Part shown: positions 12,081 to 23,464 of the stretch, piece after piece
Layout: each line of letters opens with the position of its first letter
How positions within the stretch are numbered: the first letter of the stretch is position 1
Assembly (NCBI GenBank): GCA_009838195.1
Contig: VXSC01000047.1
Location: 62,001-126,000, forward strand
Direction: 5' to 3'
From: Rhodothermaceae bacterium
Lineage (GTDB): Bacteria; Bacteroidota; Rhodothermia; Rhodothermales; Bin80
Length of the DNA: 64,000 bases
Translations under genes and position numbers: made by a program
The notes under the pieces: model-generated
What the model was told of the DNA's origin: nothing
The model's database searches: none
What the model saw: the letters and a program-made list of their open reading frames with translations, nothing else

Positions 12081-12392
12081 ATGGGTGATTTTCCATCTAT
12101 CCGTGAGTTAGAAAAAGCCTTGGTGGAGCAGATTTCGGATTCGCATGGCTCACCCTTTATTGCTCACTGTGATGTAGCTACCGAACGGGAAGAGGCTGCT
12201 TTAATGGAGGTCGTTAACCATATCAACGGAAGCATACCCGAGTTTCTGCAGCTTATGCCGCTCTTCCCGTGTGTCTGTGTGAGATTTGTGGCAACAGCAC
12301 TTTCAGAATCCTATGGGGCTGAAGGAAGAGAAGTTTACGGCTTGATTGCCGACCGCTTAGGCCTTGGTGATACCATTCCAGCCAAATACTGA
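12081..12392 (+). CDS. N-terminal fragment of a DruH/YjiT-like protein, cut by an in-frame TGA
   Basis: A 103-codon open frame ending at TGA 12390-12392. The 25 codons after the TGA (12393-12467) stay open in the same frame and run straight into the 959-codon gene starting at 12468, since 12468 minus 12081 is 387 or 129 codons. The segment FPCVCVRFVATALSESY and the bridge residues SKFFYLFRYSCERVGLALP look like one continuous alpha-helical N-terminus. I therefore read this as the first part of one roughly 1088-residue gene and not as an independent small protein. Confidence 0.6.
   Translation: MGDFPSIRELEKALVEQISDSHGSPFIAHCDVATEREEAALMEVVNHINGSIPEFLQLMPLFPCVCVRFVATALSESYGAEGREVYGLIADRLGLGDTIPAKY
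12390..12392 (+). other. In-frame TGA interrupting the DruH-like gene
   Basis: This is the only stop between 12081 and 15347 in this frame. It may be a real nonsense mutation, a sequencing error, or a recoded codon. Nothing typical of a selenocysteine element was recognised, and the residue that would stand here is unknown. Confidence 0.6.
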
Positions 12393-12467
12393 TCAAAGTT
12401 TTTCTACCTTTTCAGATATAGTTGCGAACGAGTTGGTTTAGCTCTCCCATCGGAGAACACCACAGGG

Positions 12468-15347
12468 ATGGTTTCTTCCTACTTGTTTCAGGCGGGCATA
12501 TCCCGCCACCGACTTCCCTTACTCGCAGACACCTTCCTGAAGGCAGAGCGTCTTTTGGGATGGCCAAACAGTGACAACACTAGAGATTTAGATGACTGGG
12601 AGGACAAAGCAATAGATCTTGCCCCTCATGGTCACATTGTACTTCGACGTATTGTAAAAGAGGATCCGACGGCTTACCACGCCATCGTATTTGCCCACCT
12701 TCGAAGATCCAGTGGCTTACCTAGATCACGGTTTGAGCGTGAATTCCTGAAAGCGATTGAACCTCGGGCGAAATCAGTGCGACATAGCAGAAAGGCTATG
12801 CATTTTATCCCTGATTTGGAATTTGGGAACGGCGAGCTGTGTATTACAATCCCGCAGAGAGCGCACAGAGTAGAAGTAAAAATCAATGGACATATCCATC
12901 CACTCAGTCCAGGTAGGCAACTAGGATTGCCCCTACCGTGGCCAACTCGCATTGAATGGCGACGTCATGGTAGCGATAGATACCGTTGGGAAACGATCCA
13001 TATTCTGGATGACCAGCAAAAAATATTTGTTTTCGACGGTGAGACGGGGGGCTATAAGAAATACATAGACCCCACCACATCGTCAAGTAGACAGAGCGTT
13101 CGGGCTGGTCCACTCTGCCTTATATCCAGGACAACGTTTGAAGTCAACGAGGAATGTTCGCACTGCTTGGGTGATGAAGCGTTCGTTCTCTTCTGTAACG
13201 TCTCCACAGAGATGATCATTCAGCGATGTAACCTGCAGTTCAATGTTGCGGTGGAAGACCGCTTGCGCCTAGAGGTATTTGGAGAGGCGATAGTCCGTGA
13301 CCGAAAAGGCTGGTTGCTTGCAGGGCCAATCTCAGTCCAAGTCCACGGTCGAAACACAGAAACTTCAGAGTCGCTTGAGGTAAGGCTGCGACATCCCGCG
13401 ATAAGAGGCGAACATAAGTATCCAGTGTACAGCAGATCAAACAGCGAACAGATTGCTAAGCTTGAGATGCCCAAAGACGGGGACTTTGGGTTAGCATGTG
13501 TATCTCTTCATATCCGAGGACAGGACCGGACATTATATCGAACATATTTTTGGTACTGGCCTAGTCTCAAAGGACTCCTTCACGAACGCTTATTCAATGC
13601 GTCATTAATCCCAGATAATCTCGCAGAAAAGAAACTGTTACATATCCGTCCAAACAGTCGCGGGCAACTTGAAATTATTGAGGGAGGATCCTATCTACGA
13701 GCCCGACTGTGTTTTTGGGTAGAACGCAAACTGGTCAGTTTCACTCTGCCTCCACCAGGAGCATCTATATCGGTACGAAGGCCTGACGGAAGTGAGCAAG
13801 CATTGAGAGTGGGGGCATCACTTCTCGTACAAGATGACTATGCATCCAACCTGATTGTGCGGTATTCTGATCCGATGGCAAAAATCGACTCAAAAGGAGA
13901 GATTATTCCCACGGCATTTGGTAAGGTCGGGATGTGGCGCACATCGTTTGCGGCCCTCAAACAAGAAGGTGAGCATAACAGAGTTCGTTTACTTCCCAGT
14001 TGCGAATCGAAACCTTCTCTGGATCTTGTCCGCATTGTTCTAGAGACACATCCCAGTTCCTTTAGGGCTCATCAGTATAAAGATGTTTGGTTCGCCGAAG
14101 CGGAATTTGAAAGTCCAATTGATGCCGTACGGATTAAGGCAAAAAACTTGATTACTGGCGAAAAGGTTGACGCGAATGTTTCGGTGAGATCTCAATCGGA
14201 TCTCTCGGATGAGTCAACTCTAATTTCTGTGATACCAACAATTTCCCCTAACCGTCTGAGAATAGAAATACCCCAGAACAACTACATGGATGGTATCTGG
14301 TTTGTACGCCTACATGTTCTAGAACACGGTGGCAAAGGCTGGCTCCCTGTTATCAATTCTTCTGGAGAATCTTATGCAACCTGCATCGCGCCAACCGATT
14401 TTGCTCAAAAATTGGTCTCGGAAGATCCTTCTGTTTGGTGTTCTGAAATCCAGCATACTCAAGCTTTTCTTAGACTGAGTAAAGCCATTGAAACACCGAT
14501 TGCTAAGCCGTGTCGACCGAACGTGAGCCATCTTGCTCTGAATGCCTGGAGGCAGCTGGGGAAATTGCTTGCCACACGGTCTCAAGCCGATCAGACCAGC
14601 CTTCTCAACGCCTGTGCACTTCCCCCATCAACTCATGCCCCCGAAACTTGGATCCCCACTTATCATCCCGTAGAAATTGCCCCCAATCTATTCGCAATCC
14701 CGTCCGAGGAACTCGCGATATTAGCCTCAAGTGAACAGCCAGAATACAAAGAGTTTGAGTTGGTCGGCCTCGCAGGGATTACCGAGTCCTTACAAGATGC
14801 GGTAGACGTCTTGGATGTCAGTATTACGTTCTTGACCAGCTTCACGAATGCATATGCCTTACAAGGAAACCCTGCTGCATCTCCAGGTGGTTTCAACTTC
14901 GCTCTATACTGTGAATGGGCACGGGAAATGGAACAGATCGCTGACGATGACAAGCCGCTGTCAATCTGGCACCATGATCGGGCCTGTTATAGAATGGCAG
15001 ATCGGATTGAAGCCGCCCAGAAAAACCCTTTCTCTTCGCTCCGATTGAGTAAAGCAGCCAAGATTGTTCGCAGCACCCCGGGTTTCAATTACGAAAGTTT
15101 GAACATCCCTGATGATTTGGGAGAAAAGTTTTCATTGGTTAAGGAGACCCCACGACTGATGGCGACTCTTACAGAAGCTTGGCGCAAAGGAAATGCTGAG
15201 AAATATTGGAATGACTTAGCTTCCAAAGCGAACATGCCTGTGGAGAAGACTCGAAAGCGTGTGGGGACAATTCTTCGACTAGCCCCTGAGCTCTTGGCTT
15301 TCTATCTCCTTCTTTGGGTGCTTGTGGAAAAGCACGAAAGAGCATAG
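12468..15347 (+). CDS. DruH/YjiT-like protein, main part (Druantia type III-like)
   Basis: A 959-residue protein with no recognisable enzyme motif. It starts with a helical region (residues 1-110, YLFQAGISRHRLPLLADTF, LGWP, DDWEDKA). A long beta-rich middle follows (about 130-640, with repeated sandwich-like strands), and a helical C-terminal third ends the protein. It lies 2 bases before a 1.6 kb-residue DUF1998 helicase. A large helicase of this kind with a roughly 1000-residue partner is the arrangement of Druantia type III (DruH plus DruE), and I recall the E. coli YjiT family as a relative of DruH. The match is by size, context and N-terminal pattern only. In-frame sequence extends upstream across a TGA, so the true protein may be longer or the gene broken. 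Confidence 0.6.
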   Translation: MVSSYLFQAGISRHRLPLLADTFLKAERLLGWPNSDNTRDLDDWEDKAIDLAPHGHIVLRRIVKEDPTAYHAIVFAHLRRSSGLPRSRFEREFLKAIEPRAKSVRHSRKAMHFIPDLEFGNGELCITIPQRAHRVEVKINGHIHPLSPGRQLGLPLPWPTRIEWRRHGSDRYRWETIHILDDQQKIFVFDGETGGYKKYIDPTTSSSRQSVRAGPLCLISRTTFEVNEECSHCLGDEAFVLFCNVSTEMIIQRCNLQFNVAVEDRLRLEVFGEAIVRDRKGWLLAGPISVQVHGRNTETSESLEVRLRHPAIRGEHKYPVYSRSNSEQIAKLEMPKDGDFGLACVSLHIRGQDRTLYRTYFWYWPSLKGLLHERLFNASLIPDNLAEKKLLHIRPNSRGQLEIIEGGSYLRARLCFWVERKLVSFTLPPPGASISVRRPDGSEQALRVGASLLVQDDYASNLIVRYSDPMAKIDSKGEIIPTAFGKVGMWRTSFAALKQEGEHNRVRLLPSCESKPSLDLVRIVLETHPSSFRAHQYKDVWFAEAEFESPIDAVRIKAKNLITGEKVDANVSVRSQSDLSDESTLISVIPTISPNRLRIEIPQNNYMDGIWFVRLHVLEHGGKGWLPVINSSGESYATCIAPTDFAQKLVSEDPSVWCSEIQHTQAFLRLSKAIETPIAKPCRPNVSHLALNAWRQLGKLLATRSQADQTSLLNACALPPSTHAPETWIPTYHPVEIAPNLFAIPSEELAILASSEQPEYKEFELVGLAGITESLQDAVDVLDVSITFLTSFTNAYALQGNPAASPGGFNFALYCEWAREMEQIADDDKPLSIWHHDRACYRMADRIEAAQKNPFSSLRLSKAAKIVRSTPGFNYESLNIPDDLGEKFSLVKETPRLMATLTEAWRKGNAEKYWNDLASKANMPVEKTRKRVGTILRLAPELLAFYLLLWVLVEKHERA

Positions 15348-15349
15348 CA

Positions 15350-18300
15350 ATGCCGCGAGATATTGCCCCCCTACTTCTTCGTGACCGTCTGCGCAAAACA
15401 CTCGTGCGCTACATTGCCACCGCGGTTCCGGTTTCAACCACCCGTGCCCCCGAACTCGCCCGTGCTGTCAGAGAAGCACTGGAAGATTCTTCGCTTGAAC
15501 TGACGAAGGGACCTTTTCTGGAGAGTCTTCCCGACTTCCGCAAAAAGGGATCTATCCAGGAACTGATGGATTCGGGCATACTGACGGATCATTGGCATGC
15601 CCTCCAGAAACCTGACTCTGAATGGCTACTTACACGTTCCCTCCATGAACATCAGGAGCAAGCAATTCGGCAATCCACCACTAACAGGAATTTTATTGTG
15701 GCTACAGGGACGGGGTCCGGCAAGACAGAATGCTTCTTGCTACCCATTGTAGATCGTCTATTGCGCGAGGAGAAGCTAACAGAGCCCGGGGTCCGAGCAG
15801 TAATTATATATCCTCTCAACGCCCTCGCGAATGATCAGTTGTATTTTCGCCTCGCTCCGCTGTTGTTGCGGCAATTGGGAGACCCCGGGATTACTTTCGG
15901 TCGTTTCACTGGCCAAGTCCGATCAAGTGCGAACAGACGTGAGGAAGAGTTACGCCTTCTTGACAACGTAGCCCTTAGGCATGCTTTGGGACTAGATACG
16001 TCGGTTTCAAGTCTTCCGAAATCTTGGCTTCTGTCACGCTCGGAGATGCTGGAGACACCTCCCCATATTCTGATCACGAATTATGCAATGCTGGAGCATC
16101 TCCTGCTCCTACCACGTAACGCTCCACTCTTCCATAATGCTCGCCTGCAGTTTATCGTATTGGACGAAATTCACACCTATGCAGGAGCACAAGCGATTGA
16201 GGTGGCCTTCCTATTGCGTAAGTTGAAGGTTTATCTCGGCTTAGAAGCTGGTACCATTCAGGCTATCGGTACCAGTGCCAGTCTCAATGTCGATGACTTG
16301 CAAGAATTGGCCAAGTTCGCGTCAGATCTATTCGGGGAAGAATTTGATGCAAAGTGTGATCTGATTACGGGTGAACGGAAGATCCATCCAAATCTACTAT
16401 CAGACATCCCCGAAATACAACTCGGTCCAGAAAAATGGATTGAAGTCGGTAATGTTGTATCCGAAATGCTTTCGGACAACGCCCAATCTATTGAGGAATG
16501 GAACGAGAACTGCGAATGTTGCGATGGAATTGAGGAACTCCTCCACCTTGATGGCCATGACCTTAAGGGGGCCCTTAATACTCGCCTTGCAGAAATTTCT
16601 GAGGTTAGATCCGTCGCTCACGAACTTACTGATGGACTACGAGACTTTGAGAGCCTCGCCAACACAACCTTCCCTAACAGTTCCTCCAAGACTCGCAATA
16701 GAGCCCTTCGATCCCTTATCTCTGCCGTGGTTTTCGCACGGCCAGACAATTCAGAATTTCCGATCCTCCCAGCCCGTTATCACTTGGCAGTCACCGGAAT
16801 TGACGGTGGTGTGGTACGTCTTGATTCTGAATCTAAGGAGGGTTGGTCTGATTTTCGTCCGAAGAAGTCCCATAGCGACAAGAGTGGTGTGCCGTATTTT
16901 GGTGTTCTCCCATGCCGTAACTGTGGAGAGCCCTACTTGGAAGGGTGGTACGTTAGGGGAAGAATATTTGGAAAACCTGTCCCAGGGGCTAAACGTGCCA
17001 TTTTTCGTATTGCCGCATTGGGAGATATTACAGCCTTTGAGATGGGTGTCGGGGAGGAAGAGACAGTAGATGAGGACGAAGAACGTCTATATGTCAATCC
17101 CCAAACGGGTATTGCCGAATCTACATTTACACCCGATGGTGTCCAGATTATAATGCACAGACTGCGGGAAGACGAGGATGAAAAGCGGCTTTATCTACAT
17201 GCATGCGTCGTGTGCGGCAACCGAGAACGGCGTTTCCCAGAGCCCATCACTACTTTGCATCCTGGGGATGATGCCCTCGCTGCCGTTGCGACTCAGGTTC
17301 TATTTGAGGCACTGCCCAATCAGGAAGATAGTGAAACGCCGAAACCGCTGGGAGGCCGAAAGCTACTGGCCTTTTCTGATAATCGACAGGACGCCGCATT
17401 CTTCGCTCCTTTCTTCCAACGTACAAGTCTGAACGTAACGCTGCGGACATGTATTGTACAAGCGGTTCGAGAAGCCAATGATGGAGGCGGACTCCCCCTA
17501 CGGCAAGTTCGTAATAAAGTCTGGTGGCTCCTGAATGACGGTGGACAAATTGCATACAAAGTATATCATCAATTAATCAACACGAGCGATAAGGACGCCA
17601 AGGACATCCTATTTGCACAAATTATTGCAGAGTTTTTTGTTCTTGGCCAGATAAGGACATCCTTGGAGGGATTGGGTATAGCACTGGTGGAGTACGACCA
17701 GTCAAGTCTAGATAGGTTAGCAGAGGCCATTCGTTCGACCGCAGGGAATTTGAGCCACGTGGAAGCAAGAGTTTTTGCAGAACTCACGCTTGATCGGATC
17801 CGCCATGAAAGGTTGATCGCTGATCCAAACGATGAACTTGATCTTTCTGACGAAGCGATTTGGGGGCCCTTCAAAAAACAGAAGAACAGATGTATAAATT
17901 TACAACGGAATTCCTCGAAGCAAGATCGCCATATCTTCGGGCTCCTTCCCAGAGGGGCTGCTGATAACCGTTCTACATGGATATTAGAATATAGGCTGAA
18001 TCTATCACGAGATCAGGCGTTCCAAGTCTTAGAAAAATTCTGGCAGTGTGCCCGAGAAGAGTCGCTCCTCATCCGGGCCAACCATAGAGGATACGGCCTC
18101 AACCTAGAAAAACTTCGGATTATCAATGGCATAGACCTCCGATTCTACGAGTGTGACAAATGTGGAACACGTACGTATCGATCTGTACGAAAAATATGCC
18201 CATCTTGGAGATGTGATGGTAGGCTGAACGAACTATGCCCTGAAATTCGAAGCGATCTGATCAAGGAAAATCATTATGCTCACATGTACTTGCGGGAAGC

Positions 18301-20466: not shown

Positions 20467-21195
20467 ATGATTCTCCTTATCGACTACGATAACCTTCCGA
20501 GAAGTTTAATGGAAGCAAATTTGCGCCAAGTTATGGAAATACTACTGGCCAAAGTTGACCTTTCAGCTCGGGCTCCCATTAACAGAATTTCCAGTCGATT
20601 ATATGGAGGTTGGCTAAAAGGAAAATCGTTGTCATTCAAGGCTAGGCAACTGCTTGAGCAAATTAATGACTATTTCCCTTTAGCCCTTTCAACAACAGAT
20701 CATGGCAAAGTAATCGTAGTTACCGAATTGGCACGATCGCTCGCGCGTGACCCTCAACATGATTTTACACACACATTCAGATTACGCTCTAAACCAGAGT
20801 TTAGAGTGAAACTCTTCCCGCTTAGAGACTGTGTAGAACCGTTGAATTGTAGGATTAAAGAGGTAAATTCTTTCGTTTACAATAATCTTTGCCCAAGAGC
20901 GAATTGTAATGTAACACCTGAAGCAGCATTCTATAAAGCAGAGCAGAAGCTAGTTGACTCCATGATCGTAGTTGATCTGGTACATTACGCAATTCATCAT
21001 CAGGAACACATAGTGTTGGTATCTGGCGATGATGACATGTGGCCAGGTATCCGGTATGCCTTGCTACAAGATGCTATGATCACGCATGTTATTCCAAAGC
21101 GCCCGCGCTACGGGAAAAACCCCTACAGGAAACTATCCACTCAAAATTATACCCCCATAACATTGTACCAAGAGACTGAAACTGATGTTATTTGA
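20467..21195 (+). CDS. NYN-domain (PIN-like) putative ribonuclease
   Basis: A 242-residue protein. LIDYDN at the N-terminus supplies Asp6 and Asp8, KLVDSMIVVDL supplies Asp164 and Asp170, and VSGDDDMWPGI supplies Asp188-190. This is the acidic constellation of NYN/PIN-like metal-dependent nucleases of the LabA/DUF88 type. The length is within the family range for a single domain with a short tail. The last codons overlap the next gene by 11 bases, so the pair is probably translationally coupled. The region is AT-richer than the genes before it, suggesting separate acquisition. In this setting it is a candidate effector nuclease controlled by the NTPase. Confidence 0.75.
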   Translation: MILLIDYDNLPRSLMEANLRQVMEILLAKVDLSARAPINRISSRLYGGWLKGKSLSFKARQLLEQINDYFPLALSTTDHGKVIVVTELARSLARDPQHDFTHTFRLRSKPEFRVKLFPLRDCVEPLNCRIKEVNSFVYNNLCPRANCNVTPEAAFYKAEQKLVDSMIVVDLVHYAIHHQEHIVLVSGDDDMWPGIRYALLQDAMITHVIPKRPRYGKNPYRKLSTQNYTPITLYQETETDVI

Positions 21196-23464
21196 CAACT
21201 TCAAACGTATCGTTACAACTTTTGCTGACGAGGACAGCGAGATGGCGTGGGATGGAGACGGGACCCTTTTGTTGGGGATTCGCGGAATAGAGGTTGTAGC
21301 AAAGATCATGCAAACACCAAATGGAATTCAAGTTGAACATGACGATGTTTTATGGAATGCAGAGCAGTGGATTTGGTCATACCTCGCTAAGCTTGATCGA
21401 CTAGCAGATCGAATCACCCGTTCTGTTTCCCCTCCCGATCACTATGTATCTCCGAGTGGTAAACTGCTAGATTGGGAAAATCAACCTGAGAAGGAATTTT
21501 CTGACGCAAAACAGGAACTTCAAAAAAGGTTTAGTCAACATCCGGTTGACATGACATTAATATATTTTTTGACTTCTGATGCAGGGGAAGGAAAAACCTC
21601 ATTGATTGAAAAAATCTCTGTCGACCAAGCTGAAGCATTCAAAAGAAAGGATACCCAAACGCTCGTCCTACCGGTTTCTCTTGGCGGGCGTCCATTCTTA
21701 CGCTTGGACGACGCGGTTATTGCATCGCTTTCAAATCGGTTCCGATTCCCCTTCCTTTACTATGACTCGTTCATTGAACTTGTTAAAATGGGAGTAATCA
21801 TCCCGGCGTTTGACGGTTATGAAGAGATGCTTGCAGAAACCAAATCAGGTGAAGCTATTTCGGCAATTGGTGACCTAGTCGATCAATTGTCTTCTAACGG
21901 AACCTTACTTGTTGCAGCTAGAAAAGCATATTTTGATTCTTCCTTTAGTTCTCAATCCAAATTACTTGACTCAGTTCGCCGAGAACAAAAGGTAGACGTT
22001 TGCCGAATCGCTCTGGATCGCTGGAGTCGTGAAGTATTTCTCAAATATGCGAAAAAACGGAATGTCCCAACTCCTCCTCAAGAACTACATGGTAAAGTAG
22101 CACGCAAGCTTAAGAATGATAAGCATCCAGTCCTTACTAGGGCGGTCCTTGTTCGAAGACTCATTGATGTTGTCACAGAGGAGGGTGATCTTGATAAATT
22201 TCTACAACGACTAGGCCAATCACCGACTGATTATTTTTTCGACTTTGTTGAGGGTATTGTTGAACGAGAGGCCCGCGAAAAATGGATTGATACTTCCGGT
22301 ACAAAAAAGTCATCCTTACTCACTAAGGATGAGCATCACGAATTACTTTCGCAAATTGCTTTTGAAATGTGGGTCAACGGGGTTGAGACTATTGGCCTTG
22401 ACGTCGTTCGACTTGTCGTTCAAATTTTTGTAGAAGAAAAGAACTTGACACCCGCTATCCTACGACAAATAAACAACCGCATCAATCATCATTCTCTCCT
22501 GCGCCTCGATGATTCCGCAGGTTCCATCAAGCGAATACGGTTTGATCACGAAGACTTTCGGGCATTCTATTTGGGACAGGCCTTAGCTCGAGCATTAGAT
22601 TCAAGGGATGAGTCAAATGCAAGACTGATTCTTGATGCTCATCAGTTATCCAATCCGGTGACTAACGAAACTGCCCGCTATCTTACATCTTTGGATACTT
22701 CGGTCCTGGGATCAAAAAAGGTGATTGAATACCTTCATCACTTGGCAGGAGGCCAACAACCTGTTTCCTACATTCGGGAAAACTGCGGTACGTTGATGCT
22801 GGAATTAGCGGAGCGCACAGCAATCACTCATTCGATCACTGGCGTAAATTTCCCGGAAAATGCCTTAGAGCAACGGAAAATAAAAAATCTGAATGTGTCG
22901 AATTCTTTATTTAATTCAACCAGCCTTTCAAATTCCAATATCCTCAACTGCACCTTTGAAAACTGTCGCTTCGTGGAATTGGCGCTTAATGGTAAGCACA
23001 ACCTAGATGGGACAGTTTTTGATGACGAATGTTCGTTCGACTCCGTATCCGTTGGCAACGATTTCGATGGGGAATACAGGAAATTCTTCAACCCGAATAA
23101 GGTAAAAGCCGTCCTCAAGAACCATGGATTTATCCTTGGGTCTCAGCAGAATTCCATCTCTGAACATTCTGATCTCACGAAGATGGACAAGAATATGAAA
23201 ATCGCCCTGCGTTTTATTCGAATGTTCGCCCGCTCAACTGTCGTTGCAGAAAATACTGTGCGTACACGACTCGGTACGCAACATGGTGTTTTTTTTAACA
23301 ACATCCTATCGAAACTTCAGAAAGCTGACCTTATCGAGCCTATCTCAAGTCCCGGCAACAGGCGCAGATACCGCCTAATAGTGCCATTGTCTGAGATAGA
23401 CGAACTAGTTGAAAACTCGGGGAGCACATTTGAGCAGTTTATTGCGAATGCATCGAACCATTGA
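21185..23464 (+). CDS. NACHT/STAND-type NTPase with pentapeptide-repeat and winged-helix-like C-terminus
   Basis: A 759-residue protein. Residues about 1-115 form an N-terminal domain of unknown type. Walker A is SDAGEGKTS (131-139), Walker B is VIIPAFDGYEEM (204-215) and the arginine-sensor-like strand is LLVAARKAYF (241-250). IRFDHEDFRAFYLGQALA (451-468) resembles the conserved F-x-H-x-x-F-x-E/A-F/Y element of NACHT winged-helix domains. Residues about 560-625 are short N/S/C-rich pentapeptide-like repeats (LNVSNSLFNSTSLSNSNI). The tail (about 670-745) looks like a winged helix (TVRTRLGTQHGVFFNNILSKLQKADLIEP). No nuclease motif lies in this chain; the overlapping upstream NYN gene could provide it. 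I know of no characterised system with exactly this pairing. Confidence 0.7.
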   Translation: MLFDNFKRIVTTFADEDSEMAWDGDGTLLLGIRGIEVVAKIMQTPNGIQVEHDDVLWNAEQWIWSYLAKLDRLADRITRSVSPPDHYVSPSGKLLDWENQPEKEFSDAKQELQKRFSQHPVDMTLIYFLTSDAGEGKTSLIEKISVDQAEAFKRKDTQTLVLPVSLGGRPFLRLDDAVIASLSNRFRFPFLYYDSFIELVKMGVIIPAFDGYEEMLAETKSGEAISAIGDLVDQLSSNGTLLVAARKAYFDSSFSSQSKLLDSVRREQKVDVCRIALDRWSREVFLKYAKKRNVPTPPQELHGKVARKLKNDKHPVLTRAVLVRRLIDVVTEEGDLDKFLQRLGQSPTDYFFDFVEGIVEREAREKWIDTSGTKKSSLLTKDEHHELLSQIAFEMWVNGVETIGLDVVRLVVQIFVEEKNLTPAILRQINNRINHHSLLRLDDSAGSIKRIRFDHEDFRAFYLGQALARALDSRDESNARLILDAHQLSNPVTNETARYLTSLDTSVLGSKKVIEYLHHLAGGQQPVSYIRENCGTLMLELAERTAITHSITGVNFPENALEQRKIKNLNVSNSLFNSTSLSNSNILNCTFENCRFVELALNGKHNLDGTVFDDECSFDSVSVGNDFDGEYRKFFNPNKVKAVLKNHGFILGSQQNSISEHSDLTKMDKNMKIALRFIRMFARSTVVAENTVRTRLGTQHGVFFNNILSKLQKADLIEPISSPGNRRRYRLIVPLSEIDELVENSGSTFEQFIANASNH

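What the first reader, a model, noticed from the sequence alone, without database searches (positions are those of the whole stretch)
12081..15347. DruH-like gene is one open frame cut by a single in-frame TGA
Frame 12081 runs without other stops to 15347; 12390-12392 is the only stop, and the following 25 codons and the 959-codon gene stay in the same frame. The piece upstream of the stop looks like the same N-terminal domain. The gene next to it, the helicase, is intact. This is either decay of a defence pair, a sequencing error, or readthrough.
Basis: seen in the sequence. Interest (0 to 1): 0.65.

Follow-up and report, generated by a model that had tools for sequence, protein, structure and literature searches.

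The report
Stop codon splits phage-defence sensor gene
A large gene that probably senses phage infection, sitting next to an intact defence helicase, carries one premature stop codon inside its first domain. It is most likely a recently broken (or wrongly read) gene of a known kind of defence pair, not a new mechanism.

Summary
Frame 12081-15347 is open except for one TGA at 12390-12392. The next gene, at 15350, encodes an intact YprA/DruE-type helicase that lacks the nuclease tail, as in the published 'Druantia type III-like' branch. The upstream 103 codons belong to the same gene: they share its base composition, and a Sinorhizobium relative aligns through the stop without a break. Read through, the predicted order is helices, then beta domains, then helices, with borders near those published for DruH; the stop falls inside a predicted N-domain helix (low confidence). 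'DruH-like' therefore rests on architecture and gene position. No DruH profile matches, and profile comparison is not significant. TGA is an ordinary stop here, SelB and tRNA-Sec stay below cut-off, and no structured element follows the stop, so programmed readthrough is unlikely. No relative with two separate genes was found, but the closest family has very few members. Best explanation: a recent nonsense change that disables the sensor and spares the helicase. A consensus error or minority variant in the assembly cannot be excluded: reads are not available and nine same-genus genomes lack the gene.

The parts
12081..12392 (+). N-terminal piece of the DruH-like gene, 103 codons, ending in the in-frame TGA at 12390-12392
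   Evidence: composition; co-linear match to the Sinorhizobium relative
12390..12392 (+). the single in-frame TGA, in predicted helix 101-117 of the N-terminal helical domain
   Evidence: predicted helix (low-confidence models)
12393..12467 (+). 25 in-frame codons with no usual start codon between the stop and the next ATG
12468..15347 (+). main part of the DruH-like gene, 959 codons from the first possible restart ATG; that protein would begin just before the segment VSSYLFQAGISRHRL and lack about 129 residues
15350..20266 (+). intact YprA-family DruE-like helicase, 1638 aa, with GSGKT, DEIH, QRTGRAGR, eight CxxC pairs and an MZB (DUF1998) domain near its C-terminus; no HKD motif and no nuclease tail

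Best explanation
12081-15347 is one ancestral gene of about 1088 codons for a DruH-like partner of the adjacent DruE-like helicase, carrying a recent nonsense change at codon 104. The intact protein would work as DruH is proposed to work in Druantia III: an N-terminal helical domain followed by Ig-like domains senses infection, and the helicase engages single-stranded DNA intermediates of the phage. With the stop, ribosomes release after 103 residues inside the first helical domain. Any restart at ATG 12468 would give a protein without about half of that domain, so the pair is most likely inactive or badly impaired while the helicase reading frame is still intact. Shown here: the single stop, unity of the two pieces, intact helicase frame. 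Inferred: DruH-like function, recency, loss of activity.
For: Single stop in 1088 codons. Same composition on both sides and in the helicase. The Sinorhizobium medicae plasmid relative aligns from query residue 10 to 323, across the stop, in one open frame, E 8e-8 in 7.3 Gb. N piece alone: 5/20,000 shuffles reach its score against the upstream part of that relative, 1/20,000 with the co-linear offset. Predicted order: helices 1-235, strands 260-758, helices 766-1088, against published DruH with helical N-terminus, Ig-like domains 257-748 and helical C-terminus (PMC13192584). Canonical E. coli DruH: at least 80% of the gene in one place in 503 of 513 genomes. TGA ends five of the seven genes checked around it.
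Against: Only one close relative spans the stop, at 23% identity, and its own gene is cut further down by an IS5-type insertion. One stop and no other damage in 3.2 kb is also what a consensus error or a minority variant would look like. DruH membership by sequence is not established.
Confidence: 0.58

Rival explanations
1. The TGA is not in the living organism or not in most of its population: a consensus error or minority variant in a draft assembly; the gene is continuous and functional.
For: The genome is a draft of 48 contigs. The rest of the frame and the helicase look intact and coding.
Against: Substitution errors in a polished consensus are rare (general knowledge). No independent copy was found to compare.
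Confidence: 0.25
2. A working two-part protein: a 103-aa N-terminal peptide and a 959-aa protein restarted at ATG 12468 together form the N-domain.
For: Both pieces stay in frame and look coding; a GGAG lies 12 nt before the restart ATG.
Against: The split falls inside a predicted helix. 75 nt without a start codon separate stop and restart. No relative with separate genes was found; canonical DruH is one chain (PDB 9tud; PMC13192584).
Confidence: 0.12
3. Programmed or leaky readthrough (including selenocysteine) makes some full-length protein.
For: The frame is open on both sides.
Against: SelB and tRNA-Sec searches stay under their cut-offs in this genome. RNA after the stop folds no better than shuffles (z 0.70) and matches no Rfam family. 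TGA is the normal stop of neighbouring genes. The relative has no stop there.
Confidence: 0.04

Closest known systems
Druantia type III (DruH-DruE)
   Same: Two-gene operon in the same order: a partner of about 1100 codons immediately before a YprA/DruE helicase; the helicase hits DruE models (E 1.8e-179) and the cryo-EM helicase 9tu7 (3.2e-69); the partner shows the same helix / beta / helix order with similar borders.
   Different: The partner matches none of the PADLOC DruH models; the helicase has no C-terminal PLD nuclease domains; the partner gene has a premature stop.
'Druantia type III-like' branch of YprA helicases (PMC12458937)
   Same: Helicase of this lineage with no nuclease domain, which that paper gives as the most frequent state in this branch.
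   Different: The branch was defined by a tree that was not rebuilt here; the main text does not mention DruH or describe the branch's partner proteins.
Sinorhizobium medicae plasmid pMl2 hypothetical protein WP_323131132.1
   Same: Only close relative found; aligns across the stop, E 8e-8.
   Different: No TGA at that place; gene cut by an IS5-type element; no helicase annotated next to it in the fetched stretch.

Membership tests
Druantia type III | DruE helicase of the YprA family | tested here: met
   PADLOC DruE models 1.8e-179 to 1.5e-106, MZB domain, 9tu7 3.2e-69
Druantia type III | Two C-terminal PLD domains on DruE | tested here: not met
   Helicase ends about 25 aa after MZB; no HKD motif
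Druantia type III | DruH (YjiT/STY4851 family) sequence family | tested here: not met
   No PADLOC, Pfam or NCBIfam match; no match to PDB DruH 9tud; profile-profile comparison with eight DruH not significant
Druantia type III | DruH architecture: helical N-terminus, Ig-like domains, helical C-terminus | tested here: inconclusive
   Secondary-structure order and borders agree, but the single-sequence models have mean pLDDT 37-41
Druantia type III | Partner gene directly upstream of the helicase, same strand | tested here: met
   2-nt gap, TAG CA ATG; same order in canonical loci
Druantia type III-like branch | Helicase falls in that branch of the YprA tree | not tested
   Tree not rebuilt; absence of a nuclease domain agrees with the branch
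Selenoprotein / programmed TGA readthrough | SelB, tRNA-Sec and a structure after the TGA | tested here: not met

The most novel reading that the evidence does not exclude
A DruH-like sensor made as two chains by stop and restart inside its N-terminal helical domain, so that the amount of full sensor is controlled at translation.
Probability: 0.06. Interest if true: 0.6.

Novelty: new member of a known kind. Interest (0 to 1): 0.27.

Why it matters
If the stop is real, this is a snapshot of early decay of a defence pair in which the proposed sensor is lost first and the helicase is kept. The locus also adds a DruH-like family that present defence models do not recognise, so automatic annotation would report a lone DruE here.

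Tried and rejected
Single-protein pattern scans of genome contigs and viral contigs with the partner and the helicase found no relatives. A phylum-wide search with the partner found only the window itself; with a five-row alignment two further matches appeared, one of them (G405) already in the alignment and the other weak (E 0.0035). Cyanobacterial partner proteins next to similar helicases share a short motif and give marginal alignments to this protein (blastp E 0.013 in an eight-sequence set); HMM tests against shuffles did not confirm it, so it is not used as proof. The structure models are too weak for a fold search, so none was run. The island's empty site could not be shown: in relatives the two flanking genes lie on different contigs. 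A TGA flagged inside a same-genus match (L071) proved to be that gene's normal end.

Full report
The observation. Reading 12081-15347 gives 1089 codons including the end, with one internal stop, TGA at 12390-12392, and the natural stop TAG at 15345-15347. Between the TGA and the next start codon, ATG 12468, lie 25 codons with no ATG, GTG or TTG. The helicase gene begins at ATG 15350, two bases after the partner's stop.

The two pieces are one gene. The upstream 309 bases have GC 0.485 and third-position GC 0.456; the downstream 2877 bases 0.482 and 0.453; the helicase 0.491 and 0.458; the flanking DUF1501 and PSD1 genes have third-position GC 0.576 and 0.532. The frame of 12081 has the best codon score of the six from about 12060 on. 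tblastn of the read-through protein against 72,556 plasmids found one kind of relative, a Sinorhizobium medicae hypothetical protein that aligns with residues 10-323, through the stop, in one open frame (E 8e-8, 23% identity). The stop lies opposite an ordinary residue of that protein. Taken alone, the upstream piece scores 48 against the upstream part of this relative, reached by 5 of 20,000 shuffles and by 1 with the co-linear offset; against all reading frames of the fetched locus the same score is not unique, so the co-linearity carries the weight. The Sinorhizobium gene itself is cut further down by an IS5-type element.

What the neighbours are. The helicase is a YprA-family protein closest to DruE models (1.8e-179) with DEAD, Helicase_C and MZB domains, Walker A GSGKT, DEIH, QRTGRAGR and eight CxxC pairs. 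It ends shortly after the MZB domain: there are no PLD domains. A survey of YprA helicases says that helicases of a 'Druantia type III-like' branch most often have no nuclease domain (PMC12458937). The partner matches no PADLOC, Pfam or NCBIfam model, although eleven PADLOC DruH models exist and recognise canonical DruH. Single-sequence AlphaFold models are of low confidence (mean pLDDT 41 and 37), but both give helices to about 235 and strands after that, and the full-length one gives strands to 758 and helices from 766 to the end. The published cryo-EM DruH has helical ends around Ig-like domains at 257-748, is the likely sensor, and its N-terminal helices are modelled on DNA (PMC13192584). 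This is agreement in architecture, not proof of family. The stop lies in a predicted helix of residues 101-117, and a restart at ATG 12468 would remove about half of the N-terminal helical domain.

Mechanism. Premature release at codon 104 should leave no working partner unless ribosomes restart or read through. Against readthrough: TGA ends five of seven genes checked here, including PSD1 and DUF1501; SelB and tRNA-Sec searches stay below cut-off; the following RNA has no special fold (z 0.70) and no Rfam match. Against a stable two-gene arrangement: no relative shows it; in E. coli the canonical DruH gene is found with at least 80% of its length in one place in 503 of 513 genomes. What cannot be decided is whether the TGA is fixed in the organism: reads are not held, and nine same-genus genomes lack the gene.

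Verdict. A Druantia III-like pair whose partner belongs to a family not covered by present models, most likely recently broken by one nonsense change, or apparently broken by a consensus error. The finding is sound as an observation and ordinary in kind.

Noticed in passing
L017:4853-11840, L018:4626-11763, L019:4870-11900: In three other genomes of the phylum the DruE-like helicase (46-54% identical among them) follows a different partner of about 770-810 aa, mutually 28-31% identical; the one scanned had no PADLOC match. In L017 the partner's C-terminus matches ribosomal protein S9 (2.7e-14).
   Followed up: partly
L010:2507-6051: In Microchaete (Fremyella) plasmid08 the large gene upstream of the DruE-like helicase is also broken: a deletion with change of frame relative to Pseudanabaena, while the helicase is annotated as one long gene.
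   Followed up: partly
L055:2977-5197: An Acinetobacter plasmid DruH gene is short and followed by an IS3-family element; no helicase is annotated in the fetched stretch.
   Followed up: no
20467-23464: Next to the pair lies a two-gene unit of lower GC (0.42-0.44): a NYN-domain protein and a 759-aa protein with a P-loop-like segment and a weak pentapeptide-repeat match, overlapping by 11 bases; no plasmid relative of the larger one. Possibly another defence unit.
   Followed up: partly
L020:1-15000: In G405 (13% contamination) the locus beside a DruE-like helicase holds long near-identical repeats and a run of 20 N, so its DruH-like reading frames may be misassembled.
   Followed up: no
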